Source: Caulobacteraceae bacterium
GTDB taxonomy: Bacteria > Pseudomonadota > Alphaproteobacteria > Caulobacterales > Caulobacteraceae
Reading direction: 5' to 3'
Length of the DNA: 43,185 bases
Assembly: GCA_028290905.1 (NCBI GenBank)
Contig: JAQGIW010000286.1
Span: 1 to 43,185 of the forward strand
The position numbers and the translations under genes were made by a program. Under the pieces are notes generated by a model. It was not told the DNA's origin. It saw only the letters and a program-made list of their open reading frames with translations, and made no database searches. The first letter of the stretch is position 1. Each line of letters begins with the position of its first letter. Below are positions 11,302 through 35,737 of the stretch, piece by piece.

Positions 11302-11425
11302 GCCACGGAGGACACGGAGGACACGGAGGACACGGAGAAGAAAGAATAGATTCTTGCGCTTCGCGCGAAGCGCAGAAATTTTCCTTCCTTGCTTTCTTCT
11401 CCGTGTCCTCCGTGTCCTCTGTGGT
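11302..11425. repeat. Long inverted repeat of 9-bp units with a perfect 20-bp palindrome, copy 1
   Basis: Left arm (11303-11345) is CCACGGAGG, then ACACGGAGG twice, then ACACGGAGA, then AGAAAG. The right arm (11392-11424) is its reverse complement with one unit fewer (CTTTCTTCT, CCGTGTCCT twice, CTGTGG). Between them, at 11355-11374, lies TGCGCTTCGCGCGAAGCGCA, a perfect palindrome. The element fills the space between the ends of two convergent genes. A second copy with the same central palindrome lies at 35611-35737, also between convergent genes. It probably folds as a long hairpin in RNA from either strand and could act as a bidirectional terminator. Confidence 0.85.
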
Positions 11426-11445
11426 GAACCTTTCTTTCTTCTACC

Positions 11446-12615
11446 TCACCCCGGCATCTCCACGCTCGCCACCGCCTGGGCGGCCAGGCCCTCCTCGCGG
11501 CCGGTGAAGCCCATGGCTTCGGTGGTGGTGGCCTTGACGCTGACCCGGTCCAGCGGGAGAGCGAGGAGCTCGGCGAGCCGCCCGCGCATGGCCTCGCGGT
11601 GCGGCTTGATCTTCGGCCGCTCGCAGATGAGCGTCACGTCGACATTGACCACCCGGCCGCCGCGCGCGGCGATCAGCTCGGCGGCGTGGGCGAGGAACAC
11701 CGACGACGCCGCGCCTTTCCAGCGCGGATCGCTGGGCGGGAAGTGATCGCCGATGTCTCCTTCGCCGATGGCGCCCAGCAGGGCGTCGGTGAGGGCGTGC
11801 AGGCCCGCGTCGGCATCCGAATGCCCGATCAGGGACCGGTCGTGCGGGATCCGGACCCCGCACAGCCACACCCCGTCGCCCGGACCGAAGCGGTGGGCGT
11901 CGAACCCCTGGCCGATCCGTGTCGTCATGACGCCTCCCGCGAGCAGCTCGGCCATGGCGAAATCCTCCGGATAGGTGAGCTTCATCAGTCGCGGATCGCC
12001 GGGGGTGAGGACGATCCGTCCGCCCGCCCGTTCCACCACCGCGGCGTCGTCGGTGGGTGATTCGGCGGCGGGCCAGGCGGCGTAGGCCTCCGCGAGAACG
12101 CCGGCCCGGAAGGCCTGCGGCGTTTGCGCGCGCCAGAGACCAGCCCGTTCCACCGTGGCCGTCACTGCGGGGTTCCCAACATCGGCCCACGCGGTCGCCC
12201 GCTTGAGGGTGTCGGCGACGGCGAGGGCGGGGAGGGCGCCGTCGGCGCCGTCCGCGAGGGCGGCGACGACGGCGTCGATGTGACGGGTCTCGACCAGGGG
12301 GCGGGCCGCGTCGTGGACGAGGACGATGTCCTCCGACGAGGCGTCCAGGGCTGCGAGGCCGGCTGCCACAGAGCGGTCTCGGGTGGCGCCGCCCGTGGCA
12401 AGGCGCCAGCCGTCGAGCCCCGCGAAAGCCTCAGCGGCCGCGGCCTCGTCGCCGGGCGCGATCACCACCACCACCCGGCGCGCGCCGGCGGACAGCAGGG
12501 CTTCGAGGGACCAGCGGGCCACGGGCTTGCCGCGCAGCGACCGCCATTGCTTGGCCGCGCCCGGGCCGGCCCGTTGGCCGGAGCCGGCGGCGACGATGAC
12601 GGCGAGGAAATCCAT
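11446..12615 (-). CDS. ispDF: Bifunctional 2-C-methyl-D-erythritol 4-phosphate cytidylyltransferase / MECDP synthase
   Basis: 389-aa fusion for two non-consecutive steps of the MEP isoprenoid pathway. Residues 1-~225 are Isp[14 protein letters not shown] nucleotide-binding loop, [18 protein letters not shown]. Residues ~230-389 are Isp[12 protein letters not shown] with the metal Asp and His, [32 protein letters not shown], and the [13 protein letters not shown] motif. The fusion is usual in alphaproteobacteria. ATG at 12615, divergent from dusB with only 90 bp between. The stop lies just beyond the inverted repeat at 11302-11425. Confidence 0.97.
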
Positions 12616-12679
12616 GCGGGGTCTTTAGCTGGCAAGCCCCGTCTGTCCAGGCTTTACCGGCGCCTTGTGATTGCCTAAA

Positions 12680-12703
12680 GGTTGGGCACAGTGGTTGGGC
12701 ACA
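12680..12703. promoter_or_regulatory. Direct repeat GGTTGGGCACA immediately before dusB
   Basis: The 11-mer GGTTGGGCACA occurs at 12680-12690 and 12693-12703, a 13-bp period, ending two bases before the dusB ATG at 12706. It occupies the place where a Shine-Dalgarno would be, and no standard one is visible. TTG 12682 and GTG 12691 inside it are alternative starts. It may be a binding site, a translation-control element or simply a small duplication. It does not match the sigma54 -24/-12 pattern. Confidence 0.45.
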
Positions 12704-12705
12704 AA

Positions 12706-13740
12706 ATGAGCAATTCAATTTCCATCGGTCCGATCGTGGTTCCGGGGCGGGTCTGGACCGCCCCGATGACCGGCATCTCGGACCTGCCGTTCCGGCGCGT
12801 CGCGAGCCGGCTGGGGGCGGCCTATGTGGCGACCGAGATGGTCGCCTGCGACCACCTGGCGGCCGCGCGGCCGGAGGCGGTGCGCCGGGCCGCGGTGGGT
12901 TCGGGTCTGCCCCTGATGGTGATCCAGCTGGTCGGCGCCGATGAGCGCGCCGTCGCCAGGTCCGCCGCCATCGCCGCGCGCGCCGGCGCCCACATCATCG
13001 ACCTCAACTTCGGCTGCCCCGCCAAGTCGGTGACCGGCGTGGCCTGCGGCTCGGCCCTCATGCGCGACGTCGACAAGGCCGCGAGCCTGGTGGCCGCCGC
13101 CGTGGATGCGTCGGACCGACCCGTCACCGTCAAGATGCGCCTAGGCTGGGACGAGGCGTCGAAGAACGCCCCGGAATTGGCGGCCCGGGCGCAGGCGGTG
13201 GGGGCCGCGGCGGTGACCGTGCATGGACGCACCCGCCGGCAGTTCTACGACGGCCGGGCCGACTGGGCCGCCGTTCGGGCGGTCAAGGAGGCGGTCTCCA
13301 TCCCGGTGATCGTCAACGGCGACATCCTCGATGCGGCGTCGGCGCGCGAAGCTCTCGCGCTGTCCGGCGCGGACGGGGTAATGATCGGCCGAGGCGCACT
13401 CGGCCAGCCCTGGCGGGCGGCTGCGATCGAGGCGGAACTGGGCGGCCGGCATGCCGCCGAGCCGGACGCCGTGGCGCGCCTGGCGATCGTCCTCGACCAT
13501 CTGGCGGCCAGCATCCGCTTCCATGGCCAGCATCTGGGCGTGAGGACGTTCCGCAAGCACCTGGCCGCCTATATCGATGCGGCGCCCCGAGACGCCTCGC
13601 CCGAGTGCGCCCTGCAGCCGGTTTCGGCGGACGCCCGTCGGGAGGCCCGCCGACGCCTCTGCCGTCTCGAAACCCTGGGCGAGATCGCCGCGGCTCTGGA
13701 AGCCCTCTGGGCGCCCTCCCGCGCGAGGCTGGCGGCCTGA
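12706..13740 (+). CDS. dusB: tRNA-dihydrouridine synthase (NifR3 type)
   Basis: 344-aa FMN enzyme reducing uridine to dihydrouridine in tRNA. The TIM-barrel start [15 protein letters not shown], the catalytic [19 protein letters not shown] (Cys104) and the FMN-phosphate region [30 protein letters not shown] are all present. I take ATG 12706. TTG 12682 or GTG 12691 would add 5-8 residues through a direct repeat. The stop is 2 bp before ntrB. nifR3/dusB-ntrB-ntrC is the known alphaproteobacterial order, so this gene probably carries the promoter for nitrogen regulation. Confidence 0.95.
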
Positions 13741-13742
13741 CC

Positions 13743-14837
13743 GTGACCAAGTTCATCGCGCCTCCGTCGCGCCTCGAGGCTCTGCGCGCCAACGCCTTCG
13801 ACCTGTGGCCCGAGCCGGCCATCGTCATCGACGCGCGCGGGTTCCTGACCGCCGCCAACGAGGCGGCCGAAGCCCTGTTCGGCCAATGGCTGTCGATGCT
13901 GTCCCGCGGGCCTCTGAAGACCGTACTGCCGGCCGGCTCGCCTCTGGTGGGGCTGATCGAGCGCAGCGCCATCACCCTCTCGGCCGTGCGCGTGCGGGAT
14001 ATCGAGGTGACGTTCTTCAGCCACGCCCACTTTACCGCCGACGCCGCCGCCACCCCCTTGCCCGATGGCGGCACCCTCCTCACGCTGCATGTGCGCTCGC
14101 CCGCGCCGGGCCCGGAACGGGCCGTGGATGCGCCCGGCCTGCGCTCGGTGGTGGGACTCGGCCAGATGCTGGCGCACGAGGTGAAGAACCCGCTGGCGGG
14201 CATCCGCGGCGCGGCCCAGCTGCTCAAGGGCGCGGCCAGCGCCGAGGACATGCCGCTGGCCCAGTTGATCGTCGACGAGACCGACCGGATCCGTCGGCTC
14301 GTCGATCGCATGGAGGCGTTCGCCGACGATGTGCCGCCCCACCGCACCGCGGTGAACATCCATCAGGTCCTCGACCGCGTGCGGGCGCTCGCCGCCAACG
14401 GCGTCGCCGACGGCCTGCCTCTGCGCGAGCAGTACGATCCTTCGCTGCCCCCGGCGTGGGGCGAGGAGGATCAGCTGATCCAGGTCTTCCTCAACCTGAC
14501 CAAGAACGCCGCCGAGGCCGCCCACGCCCGCGGCGACGGCCGCGGCGAGATCGGCATCTCCACGGCCTACCGCCACGGTGTGAAGATCCGGGGGCGCAAC
14601 GGCCAGGTCGGCCAGGGCGCGCCCCTGGAAGTGAAGGTGATCGACAACGGCCCGGGCGTCCCCAAGCGCCTGCGCGATCATCTCTTCGAACCGTTCGTGA
14701 CCACCAAGGCCAACGGCGCCGGGCTGGGTCTCGCCCTGGTCGCCAAGCTCGTCGCCGCCCACGGCGGCCTGATCGACTTCGAATCCGAGGCGGGCCGCAC
14801 GGTCTTCCGCGTTCTTCTGCCCGCCGCGCCGAACTGA
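13743..14837 (+). CDS. ntrB: Nitrogen-regulation sensor kinase NtrB
   Basis: 364-aa soluble histidine kinase that controls NtrC according to nitrogen status through PII. The N-terminal PAS-like domain (about 20-120) is followed by the H-box LGQMLAHEVKNPLAGIRGAAQLL with His145, the N-box FLNLTKNAAEAA, and the ATP-binding DNGPGVPKRLRDHLFEPF and TTKANGAGLGLALV. There are no membrane segments, as expected. The GTG start at 13743 is 2 bp after dusB; the frame stays open upstream but there overlaps dusB coding. ntrC follows after 36 bp. Confidence 0.95.
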   Translation: MTKFIAPPSRLEALRANAFDLWPEPAIVIDARGFLTAANEAAEALFGQWLSMLSRGPLKTVLPAGSPLVGLIERSAITLSAVRVRDIEVTFFSHAHFTADAAATPLPDGGTLLTLHVRSPAPGPERAVDAPGLRSVVGLGQMLAHEVKNPLAGIRGAAQLLKGAASAEDMPLAQLIVDETDRIRRLVDRMEAFADDVPPHRTAVNIHQVLDRVRALAANGVADGLPLREQYDPSLPPAWGEEDQLIQVFLNLTKNAAEAAHARGDGRGEIGISTAYRHGVKIRGRNGQVGQGAPLEVKVIDNGPGVPKRLRDHLFEPFVTTKANGAGLGLALVAKLVAAHGGLIDFESEAGRTVFRVLLPAAPN

Positions 14838-14873
14838 GCGCGCCTCCAGATCTGTGCTTCAGGACCCGTACCC

Positions 14874-16289
<1,416 letters not shown>

Positions 16290-16299
16290 GTTCCGCTCT

Positions 16300-16317
16300 G
16301 CCCCGCTAAAGCAGGGC
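16300..16317 (+). terminator. Possible hairpin after ntrC
   Basis: GCCCCGC (16300-16306) and GCAGGGC (16311-16317) form a 7-bp stem with one mismatch and a TAAA loop, 10 bp after the ntrC stop. No T-run follows, so it is at best a weak or Rho-assisted terminator. The 204-bp space to ntrY also holds the repeat at 16391-16415 and room for an ntrY promoter. Confidence 0.3.
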
Positions 16318-16390
16318 CCAGTGCTGTCCAGGAATACGCAATTTGGGTGATGGGTCTGGGACAGAGGTCGCCCGGCTGGAAACCTCTGGG

Positions 16391-16415
16391 TTCCCGCTTT
16401 CGCGGGGATCAGCGG
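16391..16415. repeat. Short intergenic repeat with CCCGCTTTCGCGGG core, copy 1
   Basis: The core CCGCTTTCGCGG, with GGGATCAGCGG after it, matches the reverse strand of the element at 22677-22702 (CCGCGAAAGCGG, with a GCTCAT arm). Both copies are intergenic and each can form a small hairpin. This is a REP-like element common in Caulobacterales intergenic regions. Confidence 0.5.
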
Positions 16416-16493
16416 AGGGAGTGTGTCGCGCCAAGCGTCCTTTCGGCAACTGGGGTGTTGAGTTTCAGGCACAGTCTATCCTAGACTCCGGCG

Positions 16494-18770
16494 ATGATCG
16501 AAACGCCCAGTCCGGCCGTCGCGACGTCGCCGTCGCGCGCCCCCGGCCGCCCCGCGTGGATGGGGGCGCTGATCGCGGGCCTGGTCAAGGCCATGGGCTC
16601 CCGCCTGTTCATGGGCGGATGCTTCGCGCTGGCCACCGTCCTCACCGCCATCTCCGTGACCCTGGGCTCGTCGCCGACCCTCAGCGGAGCCCTGGGGCCG
16701 GCCAGTCCCGTGGTCCTGACGCTGGTTGTCATCGGCTTCGTGCTGATCCTCACCCTGGCGGCCCTGTTGGCCTGGCGGCTGTTCGGCCTGGTCAGCGCCC
16801 AGTCCAGCGACGCCGGCGCCCGCCTGCACCTGCGCTTCGTCGCCCTGTTCGCGGTGGCCGCCGTCGCTCCAGCGGTGATCGTCGCCCTCTTCTTCGGCGT
16901 GCTGGTCACCCGGGGCGTCGACAACTGGTTCAGCGCCCGGGTCCAGAGCGTGGTCGAGAACTCCGCCACCGTGGCGCGGTCCTACGTCGACGAGCAGAAG
17001 GACTACATCGGCCGCCACGTGGCGGTGATGGCCGACAACCTCGACCAAGCCGCCGCCAGCCTGGCCGATTCGCCCGTGGCCTACGGCCGCTACCTGCGCG
17101 ATCTGGTCGCCGAGAGCGGCTTATCGGCCGCCTATGTCCTGGACCGCGACGGGCGGGTGCTGGCGCGCGCCGAGCCGGCGGTAGGCGGCGCTCCCTTCCT
17201 GGTTCCCCCGGCCTCGACCTTCAGAGCCGCCGACGAGGGCGACGTGTCGGTGGGGGCCTTCGAATCCGCCGACCTGTTCCGCGCGCTCTACCGCCTGAGG
17301 GGCTATCCGGACGCCTATCTCTACGTGGTGCGGCCGCTGAACCACGGCATCTTCCGTCACCTGCGGGAGACCGAGGCGTCCATGGCCGCCTATCGGGTGG
17401 CCAAGGCGGGGCGGGCGCGCATCCAGGCCGCCTTCGCCCTCAGCTACCTCGAGACCGTGCTGCTGGTCCTCGTCGGCGCGGTATGGCTCGGGATGGAGGC
17501 GGCCGAGAGCATCGCCGCCCCTGTGGCCCGCCTGGTCCAGGCCGCCGGCCGGGTCGCGGGCGGCGATCTCACCGCCCGGGTCGACACCCGGCGCGATCCC
17601 GAGGAGATCGCCGTGCTCTCCCGCGCCTTCAACCGCATGACCTTCGACCTCCGCGAGCAGCAGGAGGCTCTGCGCGCCGCCAGTATCGAGGCCGAATCGC
17701 GGCGGCTGTTCATGGAGGCAGTGCTGCTGGGGGTCAGCGCCGGGGTGATCGGACTGGACACCCAGGGGCGCGTCTCCGTCGTCAATCGTCAGGCGGCCCG
17801 GCTCCTGGCGCGGGACCCAGAGGCGAGCCAGGGCCGCCGCCTGAACGACATTGCGCCGGAACTGGAACCCGTGGCGGCCGCCGCCTCCATGCAAGGGGGT
17901 GAAGCCGAAGAAGACGTCGACATCACCCGCGGGGCGGAGACCCGCCGGCTGCGCGCCCGCGCCAGCCACGGGGTCGAGGGCCTGGTCCTCACCTTCGACG
18001 ATATCACCCGCCTGGTGACGGCGCAGCGCAACGCCGCCTGGCGCGATGTCGCCCGGCGCATCGCCCACGAGATCAAGAATCCGCTCACCCCTATCCAGCT
18101 CTCCGCCGAGCGCCTGCAGCGGCGCTATCGCCGGGAGATCGGCGCCGACGTCGAGATCTTCGACCGCTGCGTCGACACCATCATCCGCCAGGTCGGCGAC
18201 ATCGGCCGGATGGTGGACGAGTTCTCGGCTTTCGCGCGCATGCCGGCTCCCAAGTTCGCCCTGCATGAGGCCGGCGAACTCGTGCGGGCGGCAGTGTTCG
18301 CCCAGCGGGTCGCCGATCCGTCGGTCACCATCGACATCGAAGGGCCGCTCCCCGCCACGCCGCTGGTATGCGACGGCCGCATCGTCGGCCAGGCCCTGGC
18401 CAATGTGCTGAAGAACGCCGGGGAGGCGATCGCGACACGCAGGCTCGCCGGCGACGCCACGCCGGGGCGCATCGACATCCGCTTGCGCACCCTCGACGAT
18501 CGCCTCGACATCGAGGTCGAGGACAACGGCGCCGGCTTTCCCCTGCAGAACCGCGACCGGCTGACCGAACCCTACGTGACCACCCGCGAGAAAGGGACGG
18601 GCCTGGGCCTGGCGATCGTCAAGAGAATCCTGGAGGACCACGGCGGCGGGCTGGTCCTCGAGGACGCCGATCCGGGCCCCGGCGCACGCGTGGTGCTGTG
18701 GTTCCGGCGACACCATGATCTCTCCGCAAAACAGGACGCGGGCCGCGCAGGGCCCAAGGTGCAAGCATGA
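16494..18770 (+). CDS. ntrY: Membrane sensor kinase NtrY
   Basis: 758-aa inner-membrane histidine kinase. Membrane segments are at about 42-58, 73-97, 114-137 and 318-334, with an extracytoplasmic sensing region between the last two. Then come HAMP (335-390), PAS (400-510), the H-box RRIAHEIKNPLTPIQLSAERL with His525, the N-box ALANVLKNAGEAI, and DNGAGFP and TREKGTGLGLAIVKRI. NtrY responds to nitrogen or redox conditions in several alphaproteobacteria. The ATG at 16494 follows a 204-bp gap, so this operon probably has its own promoter. It overlaps ntrX by 4 bp (ATGA). Confidence 0.95.
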   Translation: MIETPSPAVATSPSRAPGRPAWMGALIAGLVKAMGSRLFMGGCFALATVLTAISVTLGSSPTLSGALGPASPVVLTLVVIGFVLILTLAALLAWRLFGLVSAQSSDAGARLHLRFVALFAVAAVAPAVIVALFFGVLVTRGVDNWFSARVQSVVENSATVARSYVDEQKDYIGRHVAVMADNLDQAAASLADSPVAYGRYLRDLVAESGLSAAYVLDRDGRVLARAEPAVGGAPFLVPPASTFRAADEGDVSVGAFESADLFRALYRLRGYPDAYLYVVRPLNHGIFRHLRETEASMAAYRVAKAGRARIQAAFALSYLETVLLVLVGAVWLGMEAAESIAAPVARLVQAAGRVAGGDLTARVDTRRDPEEIAVLSRAFNRMTFDLREQQEALRAASIEAESRRLFMEAVLLGVSAGVIGLDTQGRVSVVNRQAARLLARDPEASQGRRLNDIAPELEPVAAAASMQGGEAEEDVDITRGAETRRLRARASHGVEGLVLTFDDITRLVTAQRNAAWRDVARRIAHEIKNPLTPIQLSAERLQRRYRREIGADVEIFDRCVDTIIRQVGDIGRMVDEFSAFARMPAPKFALHEAGELVRAAVFAQRVADPSVTIDIEGPLPATPLVCDGRIVGQALANVLKNAGEAIATRRLAGDATPGRIDIRLRTLDDRLDIEVEDNGAGFPLQNRDRLTEPYVTTREKGTGLGLAIVKRILEDHGGGLVLEDADPGPGARVVLWFRRHHDLSAKQDAGRAGPKVQA

Positions 18771-20158
18771 TCAGTGACATTCTCGTGGTCGACGACGAGG
18801 CGGACATCCGCGAACTCGTCGCCGCGATCCTTCAGGACGACGGCTACGCGGTTCGCACCGCGCACAACGCCGAGGCGGCGCTGGCGGCCTTCCGCGCCCG
18901 CAAGCCCGGGCTGGTGATCCTCGACATCTGGATGACCTCCGGCGGCCTCGACGGCCTGGAGGTGCTGGACCGGATGAAGGCGACGGACGCGGACCTGCCG
19001 GTGATCATGATCTCCGGCCACGGCAACATCGAGACGGCGGTCAGCTCGATCAAGCGCGGCGCCTATGACTTCATCGAGAAGCCGTTCAAGTCCGATCGGC
19101 TGATGCTGATTGTCCAGCGCGCCCTCGAGGCGGCCAACCTGAGGCGGGAGAATCGCAAGCTGCGCACCCAGGCCATCGTCCCCGATGGCCTCGTCGGCGG
19201 CTCCCCGGCCGCCCAGCAGTTGCGCGCGATGATCGGCCGGGTGGCCCCGGCCAACAGTCGCGTGCTGATCTCCGGCCCGCCCGGCTCGGGCAAGGAGACC
19301 TCCGCACGGCTGATCCACGCCGCCAGCCCCCGGGCCCGCAACGAGTTCGTCGCCATCAGCGCGGCCGGCATGACTCCCGAGCGGATGGACCGCGAGCTGT
19401 TCGGCGAGGAGAGCGGGCCGGGAAGGCCGGGCCATGTCGGTGTCTTCGAGCGCGCCCATGGCGGCACGCTCTACATCGACGATGTGGCGGACATGCCGCG
19501 CGAGACGCAGAGCCGCATCCTGCGCGTCCTCGTCGAACAGCGGTTCCGTCGCGTGGGAGGCGACACCGACGTGCAGGTGGACGTGCGGGTGGTCTCCTCG
19601 ACGTCGCGGGATCTCGGCACCGAGATCGCCGCCGGCCGCCTGCGCGAGGACCTCTTCCATCGCCTGAACGTGGTTCCCCTGCGCGTGCCGGGGCTGGCCG
19701 AGCGGCGGGAGGACATTCCGGAGCTGATCGACTACTACGTCGAGCGCCTGAGCGCCGCCTCCGGCCTCACCAGGCGCACCCTGGCGCCGGACGCCTACGC
19801 CACGCTGCAGGTGCAGCCCTGGCCGGGCAATGTGCGCCAGCTGAAGAATGTCGTGGAGCGCATCCTGATCCTCGCCGCCGGCGATCCCAGCCAGCCGATC
19901 ACCGCCGAGATGCTGCCGGCCGAGGCCAGCGCCACCCCGTCCACCGGCGGGCTGGGCGCCGAGCGGATCATCGCCCTGCCCCTGCGCGAAGCGCGCGAAC
20001 TGTTCGAGCGGGAGTACCTGGACGCCCAGATCATGCGCTTCGGCGGAAATATCTCGCGGACGGCCGCCTTCATCGGCATGGAACGCTCCGCCCTGCACCG
20101 TAAGCTGAAATCGCTCGGCTTCAGCGGGTCGCGCATCATCGAGGAGACAGCGGAGTGA
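18767..20158 (+). CDS. ntrX: Response regulator NtrX
   Basis: 463-aa partner of NtrY. It has a receiver (Asp53 in LVILDIWM, Lys105), AAA+ domain (Walker A GPPGSGKE 170-177, Walker B GGTLYIDDVADMP, PWPGNVRQLKN) and a C-terminal Fis-type HTH (NISRTAAFIGMERSALHRKL). After ELFG the chain reads EESGPGRPGHVGVFERAHGG; the GAFTGA motif is missing, as in other alphaproteobacterial NtrX proteins. It starts in a 4-bp overlap with ntrY and ends in a TGATG overlap with the aminotransferase gene. Confidence 0.95.
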   Translation: MISDILVVDDEADIRELVAAILQDDGYAVRTAHNAEAALAAFRARKPGLVILDIWMTSGGLDGLEVLDRMKATDADLPVIMISGHGNIETAVSSIKRGAYDFIEKPFKSDRLMLIVQRALEAANLRRENRKLRTQAIVPDGLVGGSPAAQQLRAMIGRVAPANSRVLISGPPGSGKETSARLIHAASPRARNEFVAISAAGMTPERMDRELFGEESGPGRPGHVGVFERAHGGTLYIDDVADMPRETQSRILRVLVEQRFRRVGGDTDVQVDVRVVSSTSRDLGTEIAAGRLREDLFHRLNVVPLRVPGLAERREDIPELIDYYVERLSAASGLTRRTLAPDAYATLQVQPWPGNVRQLKNVVERILILAAGDPSQPITAEMLPAEASATPSTGGLGAERIIALPLREARELFEREYLDAQIMRFGGNISRTAAFIGMERSALHRKLKSLGFSGSRIIEETAE

Positions 20159-22661: not shown

Positions 22662-22676
22662 GGCGCACCCCCCAAA

Positions 22677-26223: not shown

Positions 26224-26233
26224 GGGCGACCCG

Positions 26234-26509: not shown

Positions 26510-26510
26510 G

Positions 26511-27492: not shown

Positions 27493-27493
27493 G

Positions 27494-27510: not shown

Positions 27511-27530
27511 GCGCGGCTCGGCGACAGGCT

Positions 27531-27560
27531 TTGAGTCTTTAGGCCAGCGCCGGCTAGGTT
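27531..27560 (+). promoter_or_regulatory. Candidate kdp promoter
   Basis: TTGAGT (27531-27536) and TAGGTT (27555-27560) are separated by 18 bp. This is a weak sigma70-like promoter, as expected for one that needs activation by KdpE. The assignment rests mainly on its distance from the operator. Confidence 0.35.
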
Positions 27561-27587
27561 TCACCTCCCAAGTCAAACGGAGCCGTC

Positions 27588-27671
27588 ATGCTTGATATCC
27601 TGTTCGTGGCGGCCGGTGTCGCCCTGTTCGCGGCCTTCGGCCTTTACGCCGTCCTGTTGAGGCGTGTCTGA
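27588..27671 (+). CDS. 27-aa single-span membrane microprotein ahead of kdpF
   Basis: ATG 27588 with GGAG five bases upstream opens a 27-codon frame: [18 protein letters not shown], then LYAVLLRRV. It is one hydrophobic helix with a basic C-terminal end, so it should sit in the inner membrane. It ends two bases before the start of kdpF and has a good Shine-Dalgarno, so it is very probably translated. It resembles KdpF in size and layout but lacks the typical LLRPDKF ending. It may be a second KdpF-like subunit or stabiliser. Confidence 0.65.
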
Positions 27672-27673
27672 CC

Positions 27674-27760
27674 ATGCTGGTCACGGTCCTCTACGTGGCG
27701 GGCGCGGTCGTGGTGACCGTCTACATGCTGGCGGCGCTGCTGCGTCCCGACAAGTTCTGA
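27674..27760 (+). CDS. kdpF: Potassium-transporting ATPase subunit KdpF
   Basis: 28-aa single-span peptide, [18 protein letters not shown] then [10 protein letters not shown]. The ending LLRPDKF is the hallmark of KdpF, which stabilises the KdpABC complex in the inner membrane. GAGG lies 12 bp upstream. It begins two bases after the preceding microgene and is followed by kdpA after 32 bp. Confidence 0.88.
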
Positions 27761-27792
27761 AAACAAGTTTCAAGAATAGCGGAAATCATCCC

Positions 27793-29496
27793 ATGAACAT
27801 TGAGGGTTGGGCCGAGATCGTTCTGACGATCGGCCTCGCCGTCGGCCTCGGCTGGCCGCTCGGCATCTACATGGCGCGCGTATGGCAGGGCGAACGCACC
27901 TGGCTCGATCCGGTGCTGGGTCCGGTGGAGCGCGCCTACAACGCTCTCGTGGGATTGAAGCCGGACAAAGGTCAGGGGTGGCTCGCCTATACCCTGTCGC
28001 TGCTAGCCTTCAGCGCAGCGTCCTTCCTCTTCCTCTACGCCATCTTGCGGTTGCAGGGACACCTGCCGCTCAACCCGCAGGGCTTCGCGGGCATGGCGCC
28101 GGATCTGGCCTTCAACACCGCCATCAGCTTCGTCACCAACACCAACTGGCAGTTCTATTCGGGCGAGAGCGCCGCCAGCCACTTTTCCCAGATGGCCGGC
28201 TTCACCGTCCAGAACTTCGCCTCGGCTGCGGCGGCCATCGCGGTCGCGGCGGCCATGGCGCGCGCCTTCGCCGCCAACCGAGGTGAGACCCTCGGCAACT
28301 TCTGGACGGATCTGTTCCGGATCAGCTTCTACATCCTGCTGCCCCTGTCGGTGGCGATAGGTCTTTGCCTGGCGGCGCTCGGCGTCCCTCAGGTCTTGCT
28401 GGCCCATGTGGACGCCCACACCATCGAAGGCGCCAAGCAATCGATCGCCCTGGGGCCGGTCGCGAGCCAGGAAGCCATCAAGATGCTGGGCACCAACGGC
28501 GGCGGGTTCTTCAACGCCAATTCCGCCCACCCCTTCGAGAACCCGAATCCGCTCAGCAACCTGATCGAGATGGTCAGTATGAACGTGCTGGCCTTCGCCT
28601 GCGTGGTCGCCTTCGGCCGCGTCACGGGACTACGCCGGGAGGCCCGGGCCCTGGTGGTCGTCATGACCCTGATGGTCACCGCGGCAGCGGGGGCCATCTA
28701 CTGGGCGGAGACCCAGCCGACTCCCGCCCTGATGGCGGCCCACGTGCACGCCATCCCCAACATGGAGGGCAAGGAGGTCCGCTTCGGCGCCGCCGCCACG
28801 GCGGTGTTCGCGGCCATGACCACCGGCGCCTCCTGCGGCGCGATCAACGGCTGGCACGAGAGCTTCACCCCCGTCGGCGGCGGCGTGGCGATGTTCATGA
28901 TCCAGCTGGCCGAAATGCTGCCGGGCGGCGTCGGTTCGGGCCTCTACGGCATGATCGTCATGGCCCTGGTGGCCGTGTTCGTGGCCGGCCTGATGGTCGG
29001 ACGTACGCCCGAATACCTCGGCAAGAAGATCGAGGCCCGCGAGATGAAGCTGGCCATGCTCGCGGTGTTGATCCTGACCGCCTCGATCCTGCTCTTCGCC
29101 GCCGCGGCCGCTGTGCTTCCGGTGGCCCTGAAGACGGTCTCGGCCAGCGGACCCCACGGGCTGTCGGAGATTCTCTACGCCTACACCTCGGCGACGGGGA
29201 ACAATGGTTCGGCCTTCGGCGGCCTGGGCTCCAATAGCTACTGGAACGTCACCATGGCGATCGCTATGTGGCTGGGCCGGTTCGGCTATGTCGTGCCGGT
29301 CCTGGCCATCGCCGGCGGCCTGGTCGTCAAGCCGAAGCTCGAGCCCACCGCCGGCACGCTCCCCACCCACGGGACGCTGTTCGTCAGCTTGCTCATCGGG
29401 GTGATCCTGATCCTCGGCGGCCTGCAGTACTTCCCGGCCCAGGCCCTCGGACCGATCGTCGAACACTTCCAGATGCTTGCCGTCACCAAATCCTGA
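27793..29496 (+). CDS. kdpA: Potassium-transporting ATPase subunit KdpA
   Basis: 567-aa K+-binding channel-like subunit of the KdpFABC pump in the inner membrane, of the Trk/Ktr/Kdp fold with four pore loops. The selectivity-filter regions are visible: [56 protein letters not shown] and [16 protein letters not shown] 27793 is chosen; the frame is open further up but covers kdpF. kdpB follows after 33 bp. Confidence 0.97.
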
Positions 29497-29529
29497 CCAG
29501 AACAACAATCGATAAGGATCACTGATCCC

Positions 29530-31593
29530 ATGACTTCCGCCGTCACCGCCAAGCCGCATGGCGCCCTTCTGGGCCGGGCCGGGCCGCAAGGCGCGCTTCT
29601 GCGCCGCGCCGCGCTCGACTCCTTCGTCAAGCTCGATCCTCGCAGGCTGACCGGCAACCCGGTCATTCTCGCCACCGAGGTCGTGGCCGTGCTCGCCACC
29701 GCCTCGTTCGTCGACGCGGCCCTCCGCCATGCGCCGGTGAGCTTCGCCCTGCAGATCGCCCTGTGGCTCTGGGCCACCGTGCTCTTCGCCAACTTCGCCG
29801 AGAGCGTCGCCGAGGGGCGGGGCAAGGCGGCGGCCGACAGCCTGCGGGCCGCCCGCGTCACCACCAAGGCCAAGCTGCTCACGGATCCGGAGAAGGGGGT
29901 CATCGCCCTGGTCGCCTCGCACGAGCTCGTCCCGGGGCAGATCATCCTCGTGGAGTCCGGCGACGTCATCCCGGCCGACGGCGAGATCATCGAGGGGGTG
30001 GCGTCGGTGAACGAGTCGGCGATCACCGGGGAATCCGCCCCGGTGATCCGCGAAAGCGGCGGCGACCGCTCGGCGGTCACCGGCGGCACCACCATCGTCT
30101 CCGACTGGCTCCGGATCCGCGTGACCTCCGGCCCGGGGACCAGCTTCCTCGACCGCATGATCGCCATGGTCGAGGGCGCCAACCGGCGCAAGACGCCCAA
30201 CGAGATCGCCCTGGCGGTCCTGCTCGCCGGCCTGACCCTGGTCTTCATGGTCGCCGTCGTCAGCCTGCTGGGCCTCGGCAAATATTCCGGCGTGAAGCTG
30301 GACCCGATCATCCTGGGCGCGCTGTTCGTCTGCCTGATCCCCACCACCATCGGCGGCCTTCTCTCCGCCGTCGGCATCGCCGGCATGGACCGCCTGCTCA
30401 AGGTCAATGTCCTGGCGACCTCGGGACGGGCCGTGGAAGCCGCCGGCGACGTCGACACCCTGCTGCTCGACAAGACCGGCACCATCACCTTCGGCAACCG
30501 CATGGCCACCGAAGTGGTCGCCGCCCCCGGCGTGCCCGAGGAGCGGGCCCTGATGGCGGCGGTGATGGCCTCGATCGCCGACGACACGGCAGAGGGACGC
30601 TCGATCCTGGAATTGGCCCGCGAACAGCACGGCCTCGTCGTGCCCGTGCCGGCCAAGTTCACCGCGATCCCCTTCAGCGCCACCACCCGCCTGTCCGGCC
30701 TGGACAGCGACGGTGTCCAATGGCGCAAGGGCGCCGTCGACGCGATCTATCGCCTGGTGGGGCTCACCCCCTCGGAGGTCCCGCGAGAGGTCCTGGCCAC
30801 GGTCGAGCGCATTTCCCGCTCGGGGGGCACGCCGCTGGCCTGCGCCCAGGACGGCAAGCTGGTGGGCGTCATCCACCTCAAGGACGTGGTCAAGCCGGGG
30901 GTGAAGGAGCGCTTCGCCGATCTGCGCCGGATGGGCCTGCGGACGGTGATGATCACCGGCGACAATCCGGTCACCGCGGCCACCATCGCCTCGGAGGCCG
31001 GCGTCGACGACTTCCTCGCCGAGGCGACTCCGGAGGACAAGCTGCGCCTGATCCGCGAGGAGCAGAAGAAGGGCCGGCTGGTGGCGATGTGCGGCGACGG
31101 CTCCAACGACGCGCCCGCGCTCGCACAGGCCGACGTCGGCGTGGCCATGCAGACCGGCACCCAGGCCGCGCGCGAGGCCGGCAACATGGTCGACCTCGAC
31201 AGCGATCCCACCAAGCTCATCGAGATCGTCGAGGTCGGCAAGCAGCTGCTGATCACCCGCGGCGCCCTGACCACGTTCTCCATCGCCAATGATGTGGCCA
31301 AGTACTTCGCCATCATCCCGGCGATGTTCGTGGTCTCGCTGCCGGCCCTGAGCGCCATCAACATCATGGGCCTGGCCAATCCTCACAGCGCCATCCTCTC
31401 GGCCGTCATCTTCAACGCCCTGGTGATCGTCGCCCTGATCCCCCTGGCCCTGCGCGGCGTGAAATACCGCGCTATCGGCGCCGGCCCGCTGCTGTCGCAA
31501 AATCTGCTGATCTACGGATTGGGCGGGGTGATCGCGCCCTTCATCGGCATCAAGGCGATCGATCTCCTGATCCACGCCATCAACCTCGCCTAG
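29530..31593 (+). CDS. kdpB: Potassium-transporting ATPase subunit KdpB
   Basis: 687-aa P-type ATPase that powers K+ uptake. The actuator motif is TGES (166-169); the Ser in this loop is the site of inhibitory phosphorylation known for E. coli KdpB. The phosphorylated Asp314 lies in [29 protein letters not shown] closes the P domain. Membrane spans flank these. ATG 29530 has AAGGA 12 bp upstream. kdpC starts 12 bp after the stop. Confidence 0.97.
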
Positions 31594-31605
31594 GATCCAC
31601 TCGAA

Positions 31606-32193
31606 ATGGTTCAGCATCTTCGTCCCGCGATCGTCAGCGTGGTTCTGTTCACGCTCTTCCTCGGCCTTGCCTATCCCCTGGCGATGACCGGCCTGATCGG
31701 CGCGGTCTTCCCCGTCCAGGCCGGCGGCAGCCTGGTGAAGGATGGGTCGGGTCAGGTGATCGGCTCGTCTCTGCTCGCCCAGGGCTTCGCCAGGCCGCAG
31801 TACCTGCATCCCAGGCCGTCCGCCGCGGGGAGTGGCTACGATCCCCTGAATTCGGGAGGGTCCAATCTGGGTCCCCTCGACAAGAAGCTGATCGATCGCG
31901 TCAAGGGCGACGCCGCCTCCATCGCCAAGTCGGATGGGGCCGCCTCGATCCCCGCCGACGCCGTGACCACCTCCGCCAGCGGTCTCGACCCCGACGTGTC
32001 GCCCGAAAACGCCCGCATGCAGACGGCGCGGATCGCGGCGGCCCGCGGCGTGGCGGCGCAGGCGGTCCAGGCCGTGATCGATTCCGGCACCCAGAACCCC
32101 CTGCTGGGCTTCATTGGAGATCCGGCCGTCAATGTCCTGGCCGTCAACCGCGCTCTCGACGCGCGCTTTCCGATGGCTCAACCTAGGGCGTGA
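31606..32193 (+). CDS. kdpC: Potassium-transporting ATPase subunit KdpC
   Basis: 195-aa subunit with one N-terminal membrane span (IVSVVLFTLFLGLAYPLAMTG) and a periplasmic domain. It shows the family stretch VIGSSLLAQGFARPQYLHPRPSAA and YDPLNSGGSNLGP. It is needed for assembly and K+ affinity of KdpFABC. The stop overlaps the GTG start of kdpD by 4 bp. Confidence 0.95.
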   Translation: MVQHLRPAIVSVVLFTLFLGLAYPLAMTGLIGAVFPVQAGGSLVKDGSGQVIGSSLLAQGFARPQYLHPRPSAAGSGYDPLNSGGSNLGPLDKKLIDRVKGDAASIAKSDGAASIPADAVTTSASGLDPDVSPENARMQTARIAAARGVAAQAVQAVIDSGTQNPLLGFIGDPAVNVLAVNRALDARFPMAQPRA

Positions 32194-34904
32194 CCCCAAC
32201 GGAACCTACCCGTCCGGATCCCGACGCGCTTCTGCGGGAAGCCAGGAAGCAGGCTCGCGGACGGTTGAAGGTTTACCTCGGCATGGCTCCGGGGGTGGGG
32301 AAGACCTACGAGATGCTGGCCAGCGGCAAGCGGCGCCTGCTCGAGGGGATCGATGTCGCCGTCGGCGTCGTCGAGACGCACGGCCGCAAGGAGACCGAGG
32401 CGCTGCTGGACGGCCTGGAGGTGCTGCCGCGGATCCCGATCGACTATCGCGGCCGCCAGCTGATGGAATTCGACCTCGACGCCGCGCTGCGCCGTCGTCC
32501 CTCCCTTCTGCTGGTCGACGAATACGCCCACACCAATGCGCCGGGTTCGCGGCACCCCAAGCGGTGGCAGGATGTCGAGGAGCTGCTGGCCGCCGGCATC
32601 GACGTCGACACCACCCTCAACGTCCAGCACCTGGAGAGCCTCGTCGACGTGATCTGGAAGATCACCGGCGTGCGGGTGCGCGAGACGGTTCCTGACTCGG
32701 CGCTGTCCGCCGCCGACGAGGTCGAACTGGTCGACATCACCCCCCAGGAACTCCTCGAGCGGCTGCACTCGGGCAAGGTCTACATGGCCGAGACCGCGCG
32801 CCTGGCAGGCGACAACTTCTTCAAGCCCGAGAACCTCACCGCGCTTCGCGAGATGGCGCTGCGCCGGGCGGCCCAGACGGTGGACGACCAGATGGTCGGC
32901 GCCATGCGCCGGCAGGGAATCGAGGGCCCGTGGGCGGCGGGTGAGCGCATCCTGGTCCTTGTCGGCGGCGACGCCCTCGCCAGCTCCCTGGTGCGGGCGG
33001 GCCGGCGGCTGGCCGACCTCATGGACGCCCCCTGGGTCGTGGCCCATGTCGAACGGCCCAATCAGCCCGCTCCCCGAGCCCAGTCCGCCCGCTGGGTGAG
33101 CGAGGCCATGAAGCTGGCCGAACGGCTGGGTGGATCGAGCGTCGTCCTGACCGGCGACGACCTGCCGGGCGCGGTGCTCGACTACGCCCGCCGCAACAAC
33201 GTCACCCAGATCGTCGTCGGCAAGTCGCCGGAGCGCCTGTGGCGGACGCTCATCGGCCGGTCGCTGGCCAATGCGCTCTTGCGCCGCTCGGGCGGCGCCT
33301 CCCTCAATTTCGTCAGCGCCGGCGCGCCGGACGCCGCGCGCGAGGAGGAGCCGAATGCGTCGGCCGAGCCTGGCTGGCGGCGCTGGAGAGGCTATGTCGG
33401 CGGCTCGGTGCTGATCGCGGCGGCCACCGCCATCGCCTTCTTCCTCGATCGCTATTCCACGGGCGGCGACCTCGCCATGATCTTCCTGGCCGGCGTCCTG
33501 ATCAGCGGCCTGGCCTTCGGCCTGCGCCCCGCCCTGTGGGCGTCGGCCCTGGCCATCCTTTCCTACAACTACTTCTTCCTCGAACCGCGGTTCTCCCTCG
33601 TCATCGGCCACGCCGCCGACGTGCTGACCTTCACGATCTTCTTCGCCGTCGCCGCTGCATCGGGCTGGCTCACCGGCAGGGTGCGCGACCAGGCGCAGCT
33701 GTCGTCACGGCGGGCCGCGGCGGTGACCGCCCTCCTGGCGGCGAGCCGCCGGCTCTCCGGCGCCGCCAACCAGGAGGAGACGGCGCGGGTCCTGGCCGAA
33801 CAGGCGTCGGCGGCGGCGGGAGGCCGGGCCGTGGTTCTGCTGCCCAAGGCCCAGGACCTGGTTCTCGCGGCCGCCGCGCCCGCGTCGATCATTCTCACCA
33901 CCGCCGAAATGGCGGCGGCCCGCTGGGCCTGGGAGCGGGGAGAGGCGGCGGGGGCGGGGACAGGAACCCTTCCCCAGCTCGGCTGGACCTTCCGCCCCCT
34001 CGTCGGGGTGCGGGGGCGGGCGGGTGTCGCCGGGGTGGAGCTGAACGCCTCGGGGGCGTTGGGCGAGGAGCGCCTGGTCGCCGCCATGCTCGACCAGGGC
34101 GCGGTCGCCCTCGAACGCGCCCAGCTCGCCGCCGTCACCGTGGAGAACGAGGCGCTGCGCCGGTCCGATAAGTTGCGCGCGGCGCTGCTGAACTCGATCA
34201 GCCACGATCTGCGCACCCCCCTCTCCACCGTCATGGGCTCGGCGACGACCCTGATCGACTATGGCCCGACCCTGAAGCCGGAAGTCGCCAGCGACCTGTT
34301 GGTCAGCATCCGCGAGGAGGCCGAACGCCTCAACCGCTACGTCGGCGACCTGCTGGACATGACGCGACTGGAAGGCGGCGCCCTGCGCACCCGGTCCGAG
34401 TGGACCGACGCCCGGGACGTGCTGGGCGCCGCGATCGCGCGGGTGGAGCGCCGGCTCGGGCATCGCCGCCTCACCCGCGACTTCCCGCCCGACCTGTCCG
34501 TGGTGCAGGTGGACCCGGGCCTGTTGGAGCAGGCAATCGTCAACGTGTTGGAGAACGCCATCGCCTACAGCCCCGATGCGTCGCTCATCGAGGTCGCCGC
34601 CTACGAGGATCGGGGCAGCGTGCTGATCTCTATCGAGGACGAAGGGCCGGGAATCCCCAAGGCCGACATCGAACGCATCTTCGAAAAGTTCCGCCGCCTC
34701 GAGGAACCCTCGGACCGCGGCCCGAGCGATCGCAACAAGGGCGCCGGCCTGGGCCTCTCCATCGCCCGGGGCTTCATCGAGGCTATGGGGGGCCGGATCG
34801 CGGCGGCCAGTCCGCTGCACCAGGGGCGGGGCACGCGCATCCTCATCAGCCTCCCCAAGGCGCCCGGCGCGGCGTCCTCAGTGCTCCCGGCCGCCGCCGA
34901 ATGA
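32190..34904 (+). CDS. kdpD: Sensor histidine kinase KdpD
   Basis: 904-aa turgor/K+-sensing kinase. In order: the KdpD N-terminal domain with Walker A GMAPGVGKT (31-39) and DEYAHTNAPGSRHPKRWQD; a universal-stress-protein-like domain (about 250-370); four membrane spans (DUF4118, about 405-495); a GAF-like region; the H-box SISHDLRTPLSTVMG with His672; and ATP-binding VLENAIAYSP, DEGPGIP and GAGLGLSIARGF. The GTG start overlaps kdpC, and the stop overlaps kdpE by 4 bp, so the regulators are part of the pump operon. Confidence 0.96.
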   Translation: MTPTEPTRPDPDALLREARKQARGRLKVYLGMAPGVGKTYEMLASGKRRLLEGIDVAVGVVETHGRKETEALLDGLEVLPRIPIDYRGRQLMEFDLDAALRRRPSLLLVDEYAHTNAPGSRHPKRWQDVEELLAAGIDVDTTLNVQHLESLVDVIWKITGVRVRETVPDSALSAADEVELVDITPQELLERLHSGKVYMAETARLAGDNFFKPENLTALREMALRRAAQTVDDQMVGAMRRQGIEGPWAAGERILVLVGGDALASSLVRAGRRLADLMDAPWVVAHVERPNQPAPRAQSARWVSEAMKLAERLGGSSVVLTGDDLPGAVLDYARRNNVTQIVVGKSPERLWRTLIGRSLANALLRRSGGASLNFVSAGAPDAAREEEPNASAEPGWRRWRGYVGGSVLIAAATAIAFFLDRYSTGGDLAMIFLAGVLISGLAFGLRPALWASALAILSYNYFFLEPRFSLVIGHAADVLTFTIFFAVAAASGWLTGRVRDQAQLSSRRAAAVTALLAASRRLSGAANQEETARVLAEQASAAAGGRAVVLLPKAQDLVLAAAAPASIILTTAEMAAARWAWERGEAAGAGTGTLPQLGWTFRPLVGVRGRAGVAGVELNASGALGEERLVAAMLDQGAVALERAQLAAVTVENEALRRSDKLRAALLNSISHDLRTPLSTVMGSATTLIDYGPTLKPEVASDLLVSIREEAERLNRYVGDLLDMTRLEGGALRTRSEWTDARDVLGAAIARVERRLGHRRLTRDFPPDLSVVQVDPGLLEQAIVNVLENAIAYSPDASLIEVAAYEDRGSVLISIEDEGPGIPKADIERIFEKFRRLEEPSDRGPSDRNKGAGLGLSIARGFIEAMGGRIAAASPLHQGRGTRILISLPKAPGAASSVLPAAAE

Positions 34905-35593
34905 CCGCTCACAAGCCCCGCATCCTCGTCATCGACGACGATCCCCAGATCCACCGGTTCCTGGCTCCCGCCCTCGAGGCGGCCGGCTACGAGCACGTCC
35001 GCGCCGACACCGCCGCCGCCGGACTGGCTCTGATCGCCAACCGCCCGCCGGAGGCGGTGATCCTGGATCTCGGCCTTCCCGACATGGACGGCAAACAGGC
35101 CCTGGAGCGGGCCCGGGCCTTCTACGACGGGCCCATCCTGATCCTCTCGGCCCGCGATCGCGAGATGGAGAAGATCGAGTCGCTCGACCTGGGCGCCGTC
35201 GACTATGTCGAAAAACCTTTTCATGTCGGGGAGTTGCTGGCGCGTCTTCGTGTCGCCATGCGCCAGAGGCTGAATCAGATGGGGACCCGGCCGGTGGTGC
35301 GCGCGGGCGATATCGAAGTCGATCTGATCAAGCGGCTGGTGAGCCGGAGCGGCGAACCGGTCCGGCTCTCGCCGCGGGAGTACGACCTGCTGGCCAAGCT
35401 GGTGGAGGCCGGCGGCCGCGTGGTCACCCACCGCCAGCTGCTCGCCTCGGTGTGGGGGCCGGCCAATGTCGAGGATGTCCAGTACCTGCGCGTCTTCGTC
35501 GGTCACCTGCGCCAGAAGCTCGAGCCCGACCCCGCCACGCCCCGCTACCTGATCACCGAAAGCGGCGTCGGCTACCGCTTCGTCTCCGACTGA
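34901..35593 (+). CDS. kdpE: Response regulator KdpE
   Basis: 230-aa OmpR/PhoB-type activator of kdp. The receiver has Asp56 in AVILDLGLPDMDG and Lys105. The winged helix includes LSPREYDLLAKLVEAGGRVVTHRQLL and VEDVQYLRVFVGHLRQKLE. ATG 34901 overlaps the kdpD stop. Its likely target is the TTTATG direct repeat at 27494-27510. The inverted repeat at 35611-35737 follows directly and could end the operon. Confidence 0.96.
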   Translation: MTAHKPRILVIDDDPQIHRFLAPALEAAGYEHVRADTAAAGLALIANRPPEAVILDLGLPDMDGKQALERARAFYDGPILILSARDREMEKIESLDLGAVDYVEKPFHVGELLARLRVAMRQRLNQMGTRPVVRAGDIEVDLIKRLVSRSGEPVRLSPREYDLLAKLVEAGGRVVTHRQLLASVWGPANVEDVQYLRVFVGHLRQKLEPDPATPRYLITESGVGYRFVSD

Positions 35594-35610
35594 CAAGCAA
35601 GATAAGAATT

Positions 35611-35737
35611 TTACCACAGAGGACACAGAGGACACGGAGAAACAAGTAAGACAAGTTCTTTTGCGCTTCGCGCGAAGCGCAATCTGCTACTCTCCTTTCT
35701 CTTTCTTCTCCGTGTTCTCTGTGTCCTCTGTGGTTAA
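35611..35737. repeat. Long inverted repeat of 9-bp units with a perfect 20-bp palindrome, copy 2
   Basis: Left arm (35611-35643): TTACCACAGAGG, then ACACAGAGG, then ACACGGAGA. The right arm (about 35701-35737) is the reverse complement, ending CTCTGTGGTTAA. The same 20-bp palindrome TGCGCTTCGCGCGAAGCGCA sits between them at 35662-35681. Like copy 1, it fills the space between convergent genes (kdpE and mazG), and its right end supplies the mazG stop codon. Spacing and flanking bases differ from copy 1, so both belong to one family and are not a recent duplication. Confidence 0.85.

What the first reader, a model, noticed from the sequence alone, without database searches (positions are those of the whole stretch)
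11302..35737. One palindromic element at two convergent gene junctions
Two copies (11302-11425 and 35611-35737) share arms of 9-bp units (ACACGGAGG type) and an identical 20-bp palindrome TGCGCTTCGCGCGAAGCGCA. Both lie exactly between the ends of converging genes (membrane synthase/ispDF and kdpE/mazG), and the second provides the mazG stop codon. The arms differ in unit number and bases while the centre is identical, which suggests selection on the centre. CCACAGAGGACACAGAG-type arms are, as far as I recall, seen scattered in many unrelated genomes, but I know of no agreed function. It could be a bidirectional terminator, a binding site for a nucleoid or segregation protein, or a mobile miniature element that prefers gene ends.
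Basis: partly seen in the sequence, partly recalled or inferred. Interest (0 to 1): 0.7.

Follow-up and report, generated by a model that had tools for sequence, protein, structure and literature searches.

The report
Nuclease-linked palindromic mobile elements
The two palindromes in this window look like stripped-down copies of a widespread mobile DNA element whose longer relatives carry a small nuclease gene (GxxExxY) between the same repeat-built arms, which gives a lead on what that common, little-studied protein does.

Summary
In detail: 9 arm matches in the window against 0.07 expected by chance. The genome holds 20 such sites and seven exact 20-bp palindromes.

The convergent-junction rule fails: of 21 sites, 6 are convergent and 12-14 co-directional; nearly all lie close to a stop codon. 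The palindrome occurs in 2 of 149 family genomes and in 7 of 20 own sites.

What recurs is the arms: about three units of C-R-C-N-N-A-G at 8-10 bp period, inverted. Both GxxExxY (PD-(D/E)XK nuclease family) genes of this genome lie between such arms, one per arm "dialect". In 63 of 79 named GxxExxY loci the flanks match as inverted arms (13 of 279 shifted positions in the same loci). Arm type follows the nuclease tree. Two congeners with other dialects have a nuclease in matching arms; a third is mixed. At 10 of 13 tested sites a congener has the junction without the element.

I conclude: nuclease-less (MITE-like) copies of a GxxExxY element, moved to gene ends probably by the arm-recognising nuclease. 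The family link and insertion are shown; recognition, cutting and trans-mobilisation are inferred. My searches of the held library showed no description of it. PF05635 (23S_rRNA_IVP) genes sit between arms of other units.

The parts
11303..11337 (+). left arm of copy 1: four units of CACGGAG, period 9
11355..11374 (.). 20-bp palindrome TGCGCTTCGCGCGAAGCGCA, centre of copy 1
11399..11424 (-). right arm of copy 1 (inverted), three units
11281..11445 (.). probable extent of copy 1 with its outer purine/pyrimidine tracts, between the 767-aa ORF and ispDF; edges not exact; congener G015 has the junction without arms
35614..35639 (+). left arm of copy 2: CACAGAG, CACAGAG, CACGGAG, period 9
35662..35681 (.). 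20-bp palindrome, centre of copy 2
35708..35733 (-). right arm of copy 2 (inverted), three units
35594..35752 (.). probable extent of copy 2: starts right after the response-regulator stop (35591-35593); congeners G015 and G012 lack it; edges not exact. 35595-35752 as single-stranded DNA folds at -45.8 kcal/mol, z -9.7
35734..35736 (-). mazG stop codon TAA, next to the right arm and probably within inserted DNA

Best explanation
The two palindromes are nuclease-less copies of a mobile element. The full element is a pair of inverted arms, each about three units of C-R-C-N-N-A-G (or -T) with an 8-10 bp period, around one small gene for a PD-(D/E)XK nuclease of the GxxExxY family. I propose that the nuclease binds the arm units of its own dialect, cuts at the element or the target, and that repair copies whatever lies between the arms to a new place. 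Copies with matching arms but only a short GC-rich hairpin centre, as in this window, would be moved in trans, as MITEs are. Copies survive mainly just after stop codons, where insertion does little harm and may even end transcription. Shown: copy family, insertion in this lineage relative to congeners, arms and nuclease sharing a history, and in three genomes a dialect that matches a resident nuclease-bearing copy. Inferred: arm recognition, cutting, and movement in trans.
For: Own genome: 20 arm sites, 54 pattern hits against 0 for the reversed pattern. It has two GxxExxY genes, both between inverted arms (C215 CACAGAG; C212 CGCAGAT), and nuclease-less copies of both dialects. Insertion: copy 2 is absent from G015 and G012; 9 of 12 further sites are empty in at least one congener. 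Generality: inverted flank score >=12 in 63 of 79 named loci, against 13 of 279 shifted positions in those loci and 180 of 947 cross-locus pairs; 107 of 131 over all sets. Strict rule, two units inward on both flanks: 72 of 131, against 0 of 379 shifted. Polarity inward in 93 of 97 labelled loci. Arm type on the nuclease tree: 2 changes, shuffled mean 10.5, 0 of 500 as low; five-state dialect 30 changes, shuffled mean 42.6, 0 of 200 as low. Congeners: G003 has CACGAAG-type copies and nuclease L252 in CACGAAG arms; G009 has GCCAAG copies and nuclease L236 in CGCCAAG arms. Genomes with >=5 arm matches: 35 of 57 with GxxExxY, 10 of 242 without, Fisher 9e-22. The D and E-x-K columns of the PD-(D/E)XK motif (motif recalled) are invariant in 10 and in 45 aligned sequences.
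Against: No transposition event, excision product or intermediate was seen, and no target-site duplication was evident. 12 of 57 nuclease-bearing genomes have no match to the arm pattern, and 10 of 242 without the nuclease have >=5. G002 and G012 have a nuclease yet are empty at several of these sites. Three congener nucleases lack clear paired arms (L237, L242, L245); L237 has a separate CACGGAG hairpin upstream. Dialect match is mixed in G011: CACAGAG-type copy, nucleases in CGCCAAG and CACGGAC arms. One tree outlier, L133; bootstrap values had not settled. Genomes are not independent: 45 of the 57 nuclease-bearing genomes are of one family; outside it the association is weak (2 of 12 against 2 of 213, p 0.015). 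10 of 79 named loci also meet the strict rule in the opposite polarity. The tree result also fits arms and gene being inherited together without recognition. No structure was obtained.
Confidence: 0.62

Rival explanations
1. The arm palindromes are independent repeats spread by host processes or another enzyme, and GxxExxY is a homing-type parasite that inserts into the centre of palindromes of its dialect.
For: Nuclease-less copies far outnumber nuclease copies (19 sites to 1 in the CACAGAG dialect). In 30 of 130 loci there are direct repeats (score >=20) around the gene against 0 of 144 shifted positions, some being whole hairpins, e.g. L203 with 137 of 139 bases identical, as if the gene sat between two complete copies. 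10 of 242 genomes have >=5 arm matches and no GxxExxY.
Against: The arms recur around GxxExxY in many phyla with mostly constant polarity and track its tree, which makes arms plus gene look like one unit. Some direct repeats look like tandem duplications (L101).
Confidence: 0.2
2. Host-kept bidirectional transcription terminators or RNA stabilisers at gene ends, with no mobility of their own now.
For: Most own sites lie near a stop codon (18 of 21 by caller, 20 after re-reading two); very stable folds, z -3.5 to -15.9, in 18 of 19 folded elements on both strands; two terminator-like sites in copy 1, 0.4 expected.
Against: No terminator-like site in copy 2; most copies are co-directional, one of them between what look like two metH halves; congeners lack them at the same junctions; this does not explain the nuclease link.
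Confidence: 0.1
3. REPIN/TIR-type repeats moved by a Y1 tyrosine transposase (RAYT/TIRYT).
For: Same overall logic: hairpin copies plus a resident enzyme gene (PMC3116915 passages; PMC3733652 abstract and section 16). Congener G003 has 8 Y1_Tnp matches.
Against: The own genome has no Y1_Tnp match at E 0.001. The six congener Y1_Tnp loci fetched have no C-R-C-N-N-A-K pairs in their flanks; the inverted repeats there are of other sequence, with GGGGAC in L258 and L259.
Confidence: 0.04
4. Binding site of a nucleoid or chromosome-segregation protein at the 20-bp palindrome.
For: Exact identity of the 20 bp in 7 own copies and 7 of G003 (six of these with arms, of another dialect).
Against: Present in 2 of 149 family genomes and 7 of 20 own sites. 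Chromosomal order could not be tested in 317 contigs.
Confidence: 0.04

Closest known systems
REPIN/RAYT (REPtrons) and TIRtrons (Y1 tyrosine transposase with GTAG repeats or TIRs)
   Same: Inverted-repeat hairpins in many extragenic copies, mostly downstream of genes; a resident enzyme gene flanked by such repeats; in some genomes several repeat types, each beside its own enzyme gene (PMC3116915 passages; PMC3733652 abstract and section 16).
   Different: The enzyme here is a PD-(D/E)XK family nuclease, not HUH/Y1. Arms are tandem 8-10 bp units, not a GTAG-tagged palindrome or GGGGWSAS TIR. The own genome has no Y1_Tnp match.
Bacterial MITEs
   Same: Short, non-coding, terminal inverted repeats, arms shared with a gene-bearing parent (definition recalled).
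   Different: The parent found here carries a nuclease gene and no transposase; no target-site duplication was evident; ends are unit arrays with a purine tract outside.
23S rRNA intervening sequences with the S23p/IVP four-helix protein
   Same: A small gene inside an inverted-repeat stem; the Coxiella IVS has tandem heptamers before the ORF (PMC4990558 passages). PF05635 genes lie between inverted tandem-repeat arms here (22 of 25 tested).
   Different: Different protein fold and different units (e.g. TAGGCAG, TGAGTAG); the two window elements lie between protein genes.
GxxExxY protein (TIGR04256; PF13366 PDDEXK_3)
   Same: The gene between the arms at C215 is a clear member (2e-41 and 6e-41).
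   Different: The window copies have no such gene. The two held papers found with the name mention it in passing (passages).

Membership tests
GxxExxY element (defined here: C-R-C-N-N-A-K unit arms around a TIGR04256 gene) | inverted arms of ~3 units, 8-10 bp period, inward polarity | tested here: met
   window copies; class:
GxxExxY element (defined here: C-R-C-N-N-A-K unit arms around a TIGR04256 gene) | nuclease gene between the arms | tested here: not met
   absent in both window copies (about 120 bp arm to arm), present in C215 and C212; the window copies are therefore called nuclease-less relatives
GxxExxY element (defined here: C-R-C-N-N-A-K unit arms around a TIGR04256 gene) | movement catalysed by the nuclease | not testable with these tools
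   needs an experiment
REPIN/RAYT | resident Y1_Tnp (PF01797) gene | tested here: not met
   0 matches at E 0.001 in G000; assembly 96% complete
REPIN/RAYT | GTAG or CGTC tag next to the palindrome | tested here: not met
   38 aligned ends show TTY-ACCACAGAG after a purine tract and no conserved tag; the seven-copy centre is not flanked by such a tag
REPIN/RAYT | hairpin-forming inverted repeats in many extragenic copies | tested here: met
MITE of a known IS | arms equal to the terminal inverted repeats of an IS with a transposase | not tested
   no IS library on hand; arms are shared with GxxExxY genes instead
MITE of a known IS | target-site duplication | tested here: inconclusive
   none evident in ten empty-site comparisons, but relatives are about 70-80% identical and edges are blurred
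Intrinsic bidirectional terminator | GC stem followed by a T run on both strands | tested here: inconclusive
   copy 1: 2 terminator-like sites, one per strand, 0.4 expected; copy 2: 0
Intrinsic bidirectional terminator | placed between convergent genes | tested here: not met
   6 of 21 sites convergent; all junctions of the held own loci, these included, 18 of 81
Rfam RNA families | match above gathering score | tested here: not met
   0 matches in the window and five own loci

The most novel reading that the evidence does not exclude
GxxExxY elements are a separate class of mobile DNA in bacteria, archaea and perhaps large viruses. A lone PD-(D/E)XK nuclease of about 120 aa, without any transposase or recombinase of its own, reads a short repeated unit in its arms, spreads its own gene and a larger population of nuclease-less hairpins, and drifts into genome-specific 'dialects'. 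PF05635 four-helix genes are a second, unrelated protein that has taken up the same inverted-tandem-arm architecture.
Probability: 0.42. Interest if true: 0.92.

Novelty: new variant of a known kind. Interest (0 to 1): 0.8.

Why it matters
GxxExxY proteins are annotated in many environmental genomes, and CCACAGAGGACACAGAG-type repeats are scattered through them; neither has an agreed role that I know of (recalled). Finding that one lies inside the other, with matching dialects, gives both a testable explanation: a nuclease and its recognition arms. It would add a non-transposase enzyme to the few known ways by which palindromic repeats populate genomes. It may also explain N-termini of predicted proteins that are read from arm DNA (seen), and it offers a compact nuclease that may read repeated 7-bp units.

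Tried and rejected
Rejected: the convergent-junction rule; the palindrome as the defining part; Y1_Tnp mobilisation; known RNA families. I took PF05635 as a negative control and it turned out to be a second arm-bearing family, so my negative controls are shifted positions in the same loci, not another gene family. One search had no shifted control of its own.

Led nowhere: no PDB sequence relative of GxxExxY at E up to 1; no match in the phage records, 8 plasmid records; no PHROGs match and only marginal Cas4 matches, E 0.003 and 0.005. Literature: ten searches listed no paper that I recognised as being on these arms or on GxxExxY mobility. Several listings were capped (e.g. 15 of 1,458), only six papers were opened (passages, or abstract and one section), and the library holds only open-licence papers. 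One search found two papers with a 16-base arm string, both on animals by title, not opened; one search found one with PF13366, not opened. Target-site duplications: none evident; the direct repeats at L101 look like a tandem duplication of element plus flanks.

Rows dropped or capped: one search kept the best 80 of 574 relatives. One search's loci are its 30 best matches by genome. One search left out 1 of 80 loci and 1 of 132 for short flanks. One search used 129 rows, 34 without an arm label; L250 was too short for it. L207 and L208 are identical in the nuclease. One search tested 25 of the 30 fetched PF05635 loci. One search dropped C246 from the arm pairing because it has no clear right arm; in the folding it was kept, and C215 was left out for length. 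One search aligned 38 of 40 ends. One search took the 57 over-cut-off genomes, not the 58th weak one. One search read 15 of the 20 matches, leaving out the own two and three fragments. One search fetched 20 of the relative sites suggested.

Full report
What is there. The window holds two palindromic elements, at 11303-11424 and 35614-35733 arm to arm, each with inverted arms of 9-bp units around a shared 20-bp palindrome. Nine arm matches were found against 0.07 expected. The genome (G000, 5.23 Mb, 317 contigs, window = C276) has seven exact palindromes with 0 for the reversed control. CCACRGAGGACACRGAG with one mismatch gives 54 hits with 0 for the reversed control, which group into 20 sites. 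Nineteen have both arms; C246 has only one. Seven of the 20 have the palindrome; C215 has a gene; most others have other short GC-rich hairpins in the centre, by reading.

The long copy. At C215 the arms are about 410 bp apart and enclose, on the reverse strand, a gene of the GxxExxY family (PF13366 6e-41, TIGR04256 2e-41). The genome has one other such gene, at C212, and it too lies between inverted arms, of a second unit type, CGCAGAT. That second type has 14 pattern hits, 0 for the reversed control. It also has nuclease-less copies (C96, C317; hits on one arm only at C35, C114, C294, C259), with a similar centre of roughly 80 bp at C96, C317 and C294. At C148 and C181 a CACAGAG element lies inside CGCAGAT arms, and at C259 the two arm types adjoin. 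The start codon of the C215 gene is uncertain: the frame is open upstream through the arm.

Generality. I tested whether GxxExxY genes elsewhere sit between arms. In the best 80 of 574 named loci, from bacteria and two archaea, the best inverted match between the 200-bp flanks scored >=12 in 63 of 79 (one flank too short), against 13 of 279 positions shifted within the same loci and 180 of 947 cross-locus pairs; the latter are raised because arms share a motif. Over all 131 scored loci, 107 pass. Under a strict unit rule on both flanks the counts are 21 of 30 (best phylum loci), 43 of 79 (named), 5 of 15 (genus), 2 of 2 (own) and 1 of 5 (viral contigs), 72 of 131 in all, against 0 of 379 shifted positions; 10 of 79 named loci also satisfied the rule in the opposite polarity, probably because whole hairpins flank some genes. 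Unit spacing is 8, 9 or 10 bp in 274 of the 318 spacings counted. An isolate example is Sphingomonas parapaucimobilis YK209, where a GxxExxY gene in CGCGAAG arms lies between fabD and fabG. Of four divergent genes on viral contigs, L205, L207 and L208 (the last two identical) have long inverted arms of another sequence.

Arms and nuclease evolve together. On a tree of 129 nucleases, 10 of the 11 rows with arms of type C-R-C-N-N-A-T/C form one group (support 100/96, rough because the bootstrap had not settled); the exception is L133. The label needs 2 changes against 10.5 on average in shuffles, 0 of 500 as low. The finer dialect (positions 4-5) needs 30 changes against 42.6, 0 of 200 as low. 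Few columns make many forks uncertain, and near relatives cluster labels by themselves, so this shows a shared history rather than recognition as such.

Dialect by genome. Ten of 16 genomes of the genus have GxxExxY. G003 has the same 20-bp palindrome seven times, six in elements with CACGAAG- or CACAAAG-type arms, one of them degenerate. Its nuclease L252 has CACGAAG arms. G009 has elements with GCCAAG arms, and its nuclease L236 has CGCCAAG arms. So three genomes show three dialects, each matched by a resident nuclease. G011 is mixed: a CACAGAG-type copy with nucleases in CGCCAAG and CACGGAC arms. L237, L242 and L245 have no clear paired arms. Across 299 genomes of the phylum, those with >=5 arm matches are 35 of 57 with GxxExxY and 10 of 242 without; single matches are common as background, in the reversed control too. 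Within one family rich in both it is 33 of 45 against 8 of 29 (p 1.4e-4); outside it 2 of 12 against 2 of 213 (p 0.015).

Insertion. At copy 2 the congeners G015 and G012 have the response-regulator and mazG genes abutting without the element. For 12 more sites a query of joined flanks was run against six relatives. Nine sites (C40, C43a, C139, C149, C170a, C207, C209, C240, C276a) have at least one relative with both flanks close together and no arms; three (C36, C224, C241) gave no adjacent pair of flanks. At C40 and C209, G009 has an element of its own dialect at the same junction. At C170a (G002, G010) and C209 (G010), other sequence fills the gap. No target-site duplication is evident, but relatives are only about 70-80% identical.

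Placement. My gene caller gave 12 co-directional, 6 convergent and 3 divergent among 21 sites (20 plus C212); all junctions in the held own loci, these included, are 46, 18 and 17. Reading C43b and C209 by eye suggests both are co-directional, which would leave C240 as the only divergent one; that reading is mine. So the convergent rule is not supported. Closeness to a stop codon is (18 of 21 by caller, 20 after the re-reading), but because any non-divergent gap has a gene end, that excess is modest.

Structure. Left and right arms of one element match each other better than arms of other elements (mean 22.7 against 18.8; 0 of 10,000 permutations; 19 elements). Of 19 elements folded as RNA (C215 left out for length), 18 fold far better than shuffles on both strands; C246 does not. 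Copy 2 folds as single-stranded DNA at -45.8 kcal/mol, z -9.7. So an element's two arms are kept alike, by pairing or by copying from each other. Terminator-like sites are found in copy 1 and not in copy 2.

Mechanism and standing. The protein has the D and E-x-K columns of PD-(D/E)XK nucleases, invariant in both alignments (the motif is recalled). The simplest reading is an arm-recognising nuclease that spreads what lies between its arms; the window copies are its nuclease-less passengers. The rival that the nuclease instead homes into pre-existing palindromes is not excluded: 30 of 130 loci also have direct repeats around the gene, against 0 of 144 shifted, some of them whole hairpins (L203). 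RAYT-type mobilisation is disfavoured because the genome has no Y1_Tnp match and the six fetched congener Y1_Tnp loci lack these units. In logic the system resembles REPIN/RAYT and TIRtrons, with another enzyme and other ends. Movement itself is not shown.

Noticed in passing
L262-L282, L288-L291: 23S_rRNA_IVP (PF05635) four-helix genes also lie between inverted arms of short tandem repeats: 22 of 25 tested score >=12 (no shifted control run), with other units (TAGGCAG, TGAGTAG, GTGAGAT). Their position relative to rRNA genes was not checked.
   Followed up: partly
own genome C148:18313-18513, C181:2705-2920, C259:45049: CACAGAG elements nested inside or abutting CGCAGAT elements.
   Followed up: partly
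L205-L208: Divergent GxxExxY genes on IMG/VR contigs of 50-80 kb; L205, L207 and L208 (the last two identical in the gene) have long inverted arms of AT-rich repeats. The kind of virus was not tested.
   Followed up: no
L097, L101, L115: GxxExxY elements before the same gene start (apparently between pyrB and pyrC, by reading) in three genomes; in L101 element and flanks seem tandemly duplicated.
   Followed up: partly
L185, L198, L201: Satellite-like tandem arrays of arm hairpins around GxxExxY genes in Bacteroidota.
   Followed up: no
L228, L233 (G010 at the C170a and C209 sites): Junctions that carry elements in G000 hold a different sequence in congener G010 that looks like another dispersed repeat (CTCTCCC...GGGAGAG palindromes).
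   Followed up: no
own C40 and G009 C235: In two congeners elements of different dialect lie between what look like the two halves of a split metH, by reading.
   Followed up: partly
L258, L259: Congener Y1_Tnp genes flanked by inverted repeats containing GGGGAC, resembling the TIRtrons of PMC3733652 section 16.
   Followed up: no
window 8976-11279: 767-aa ORF before copy 1 has no Pfam match at E 0.001; function unknown.
   Followed up: no
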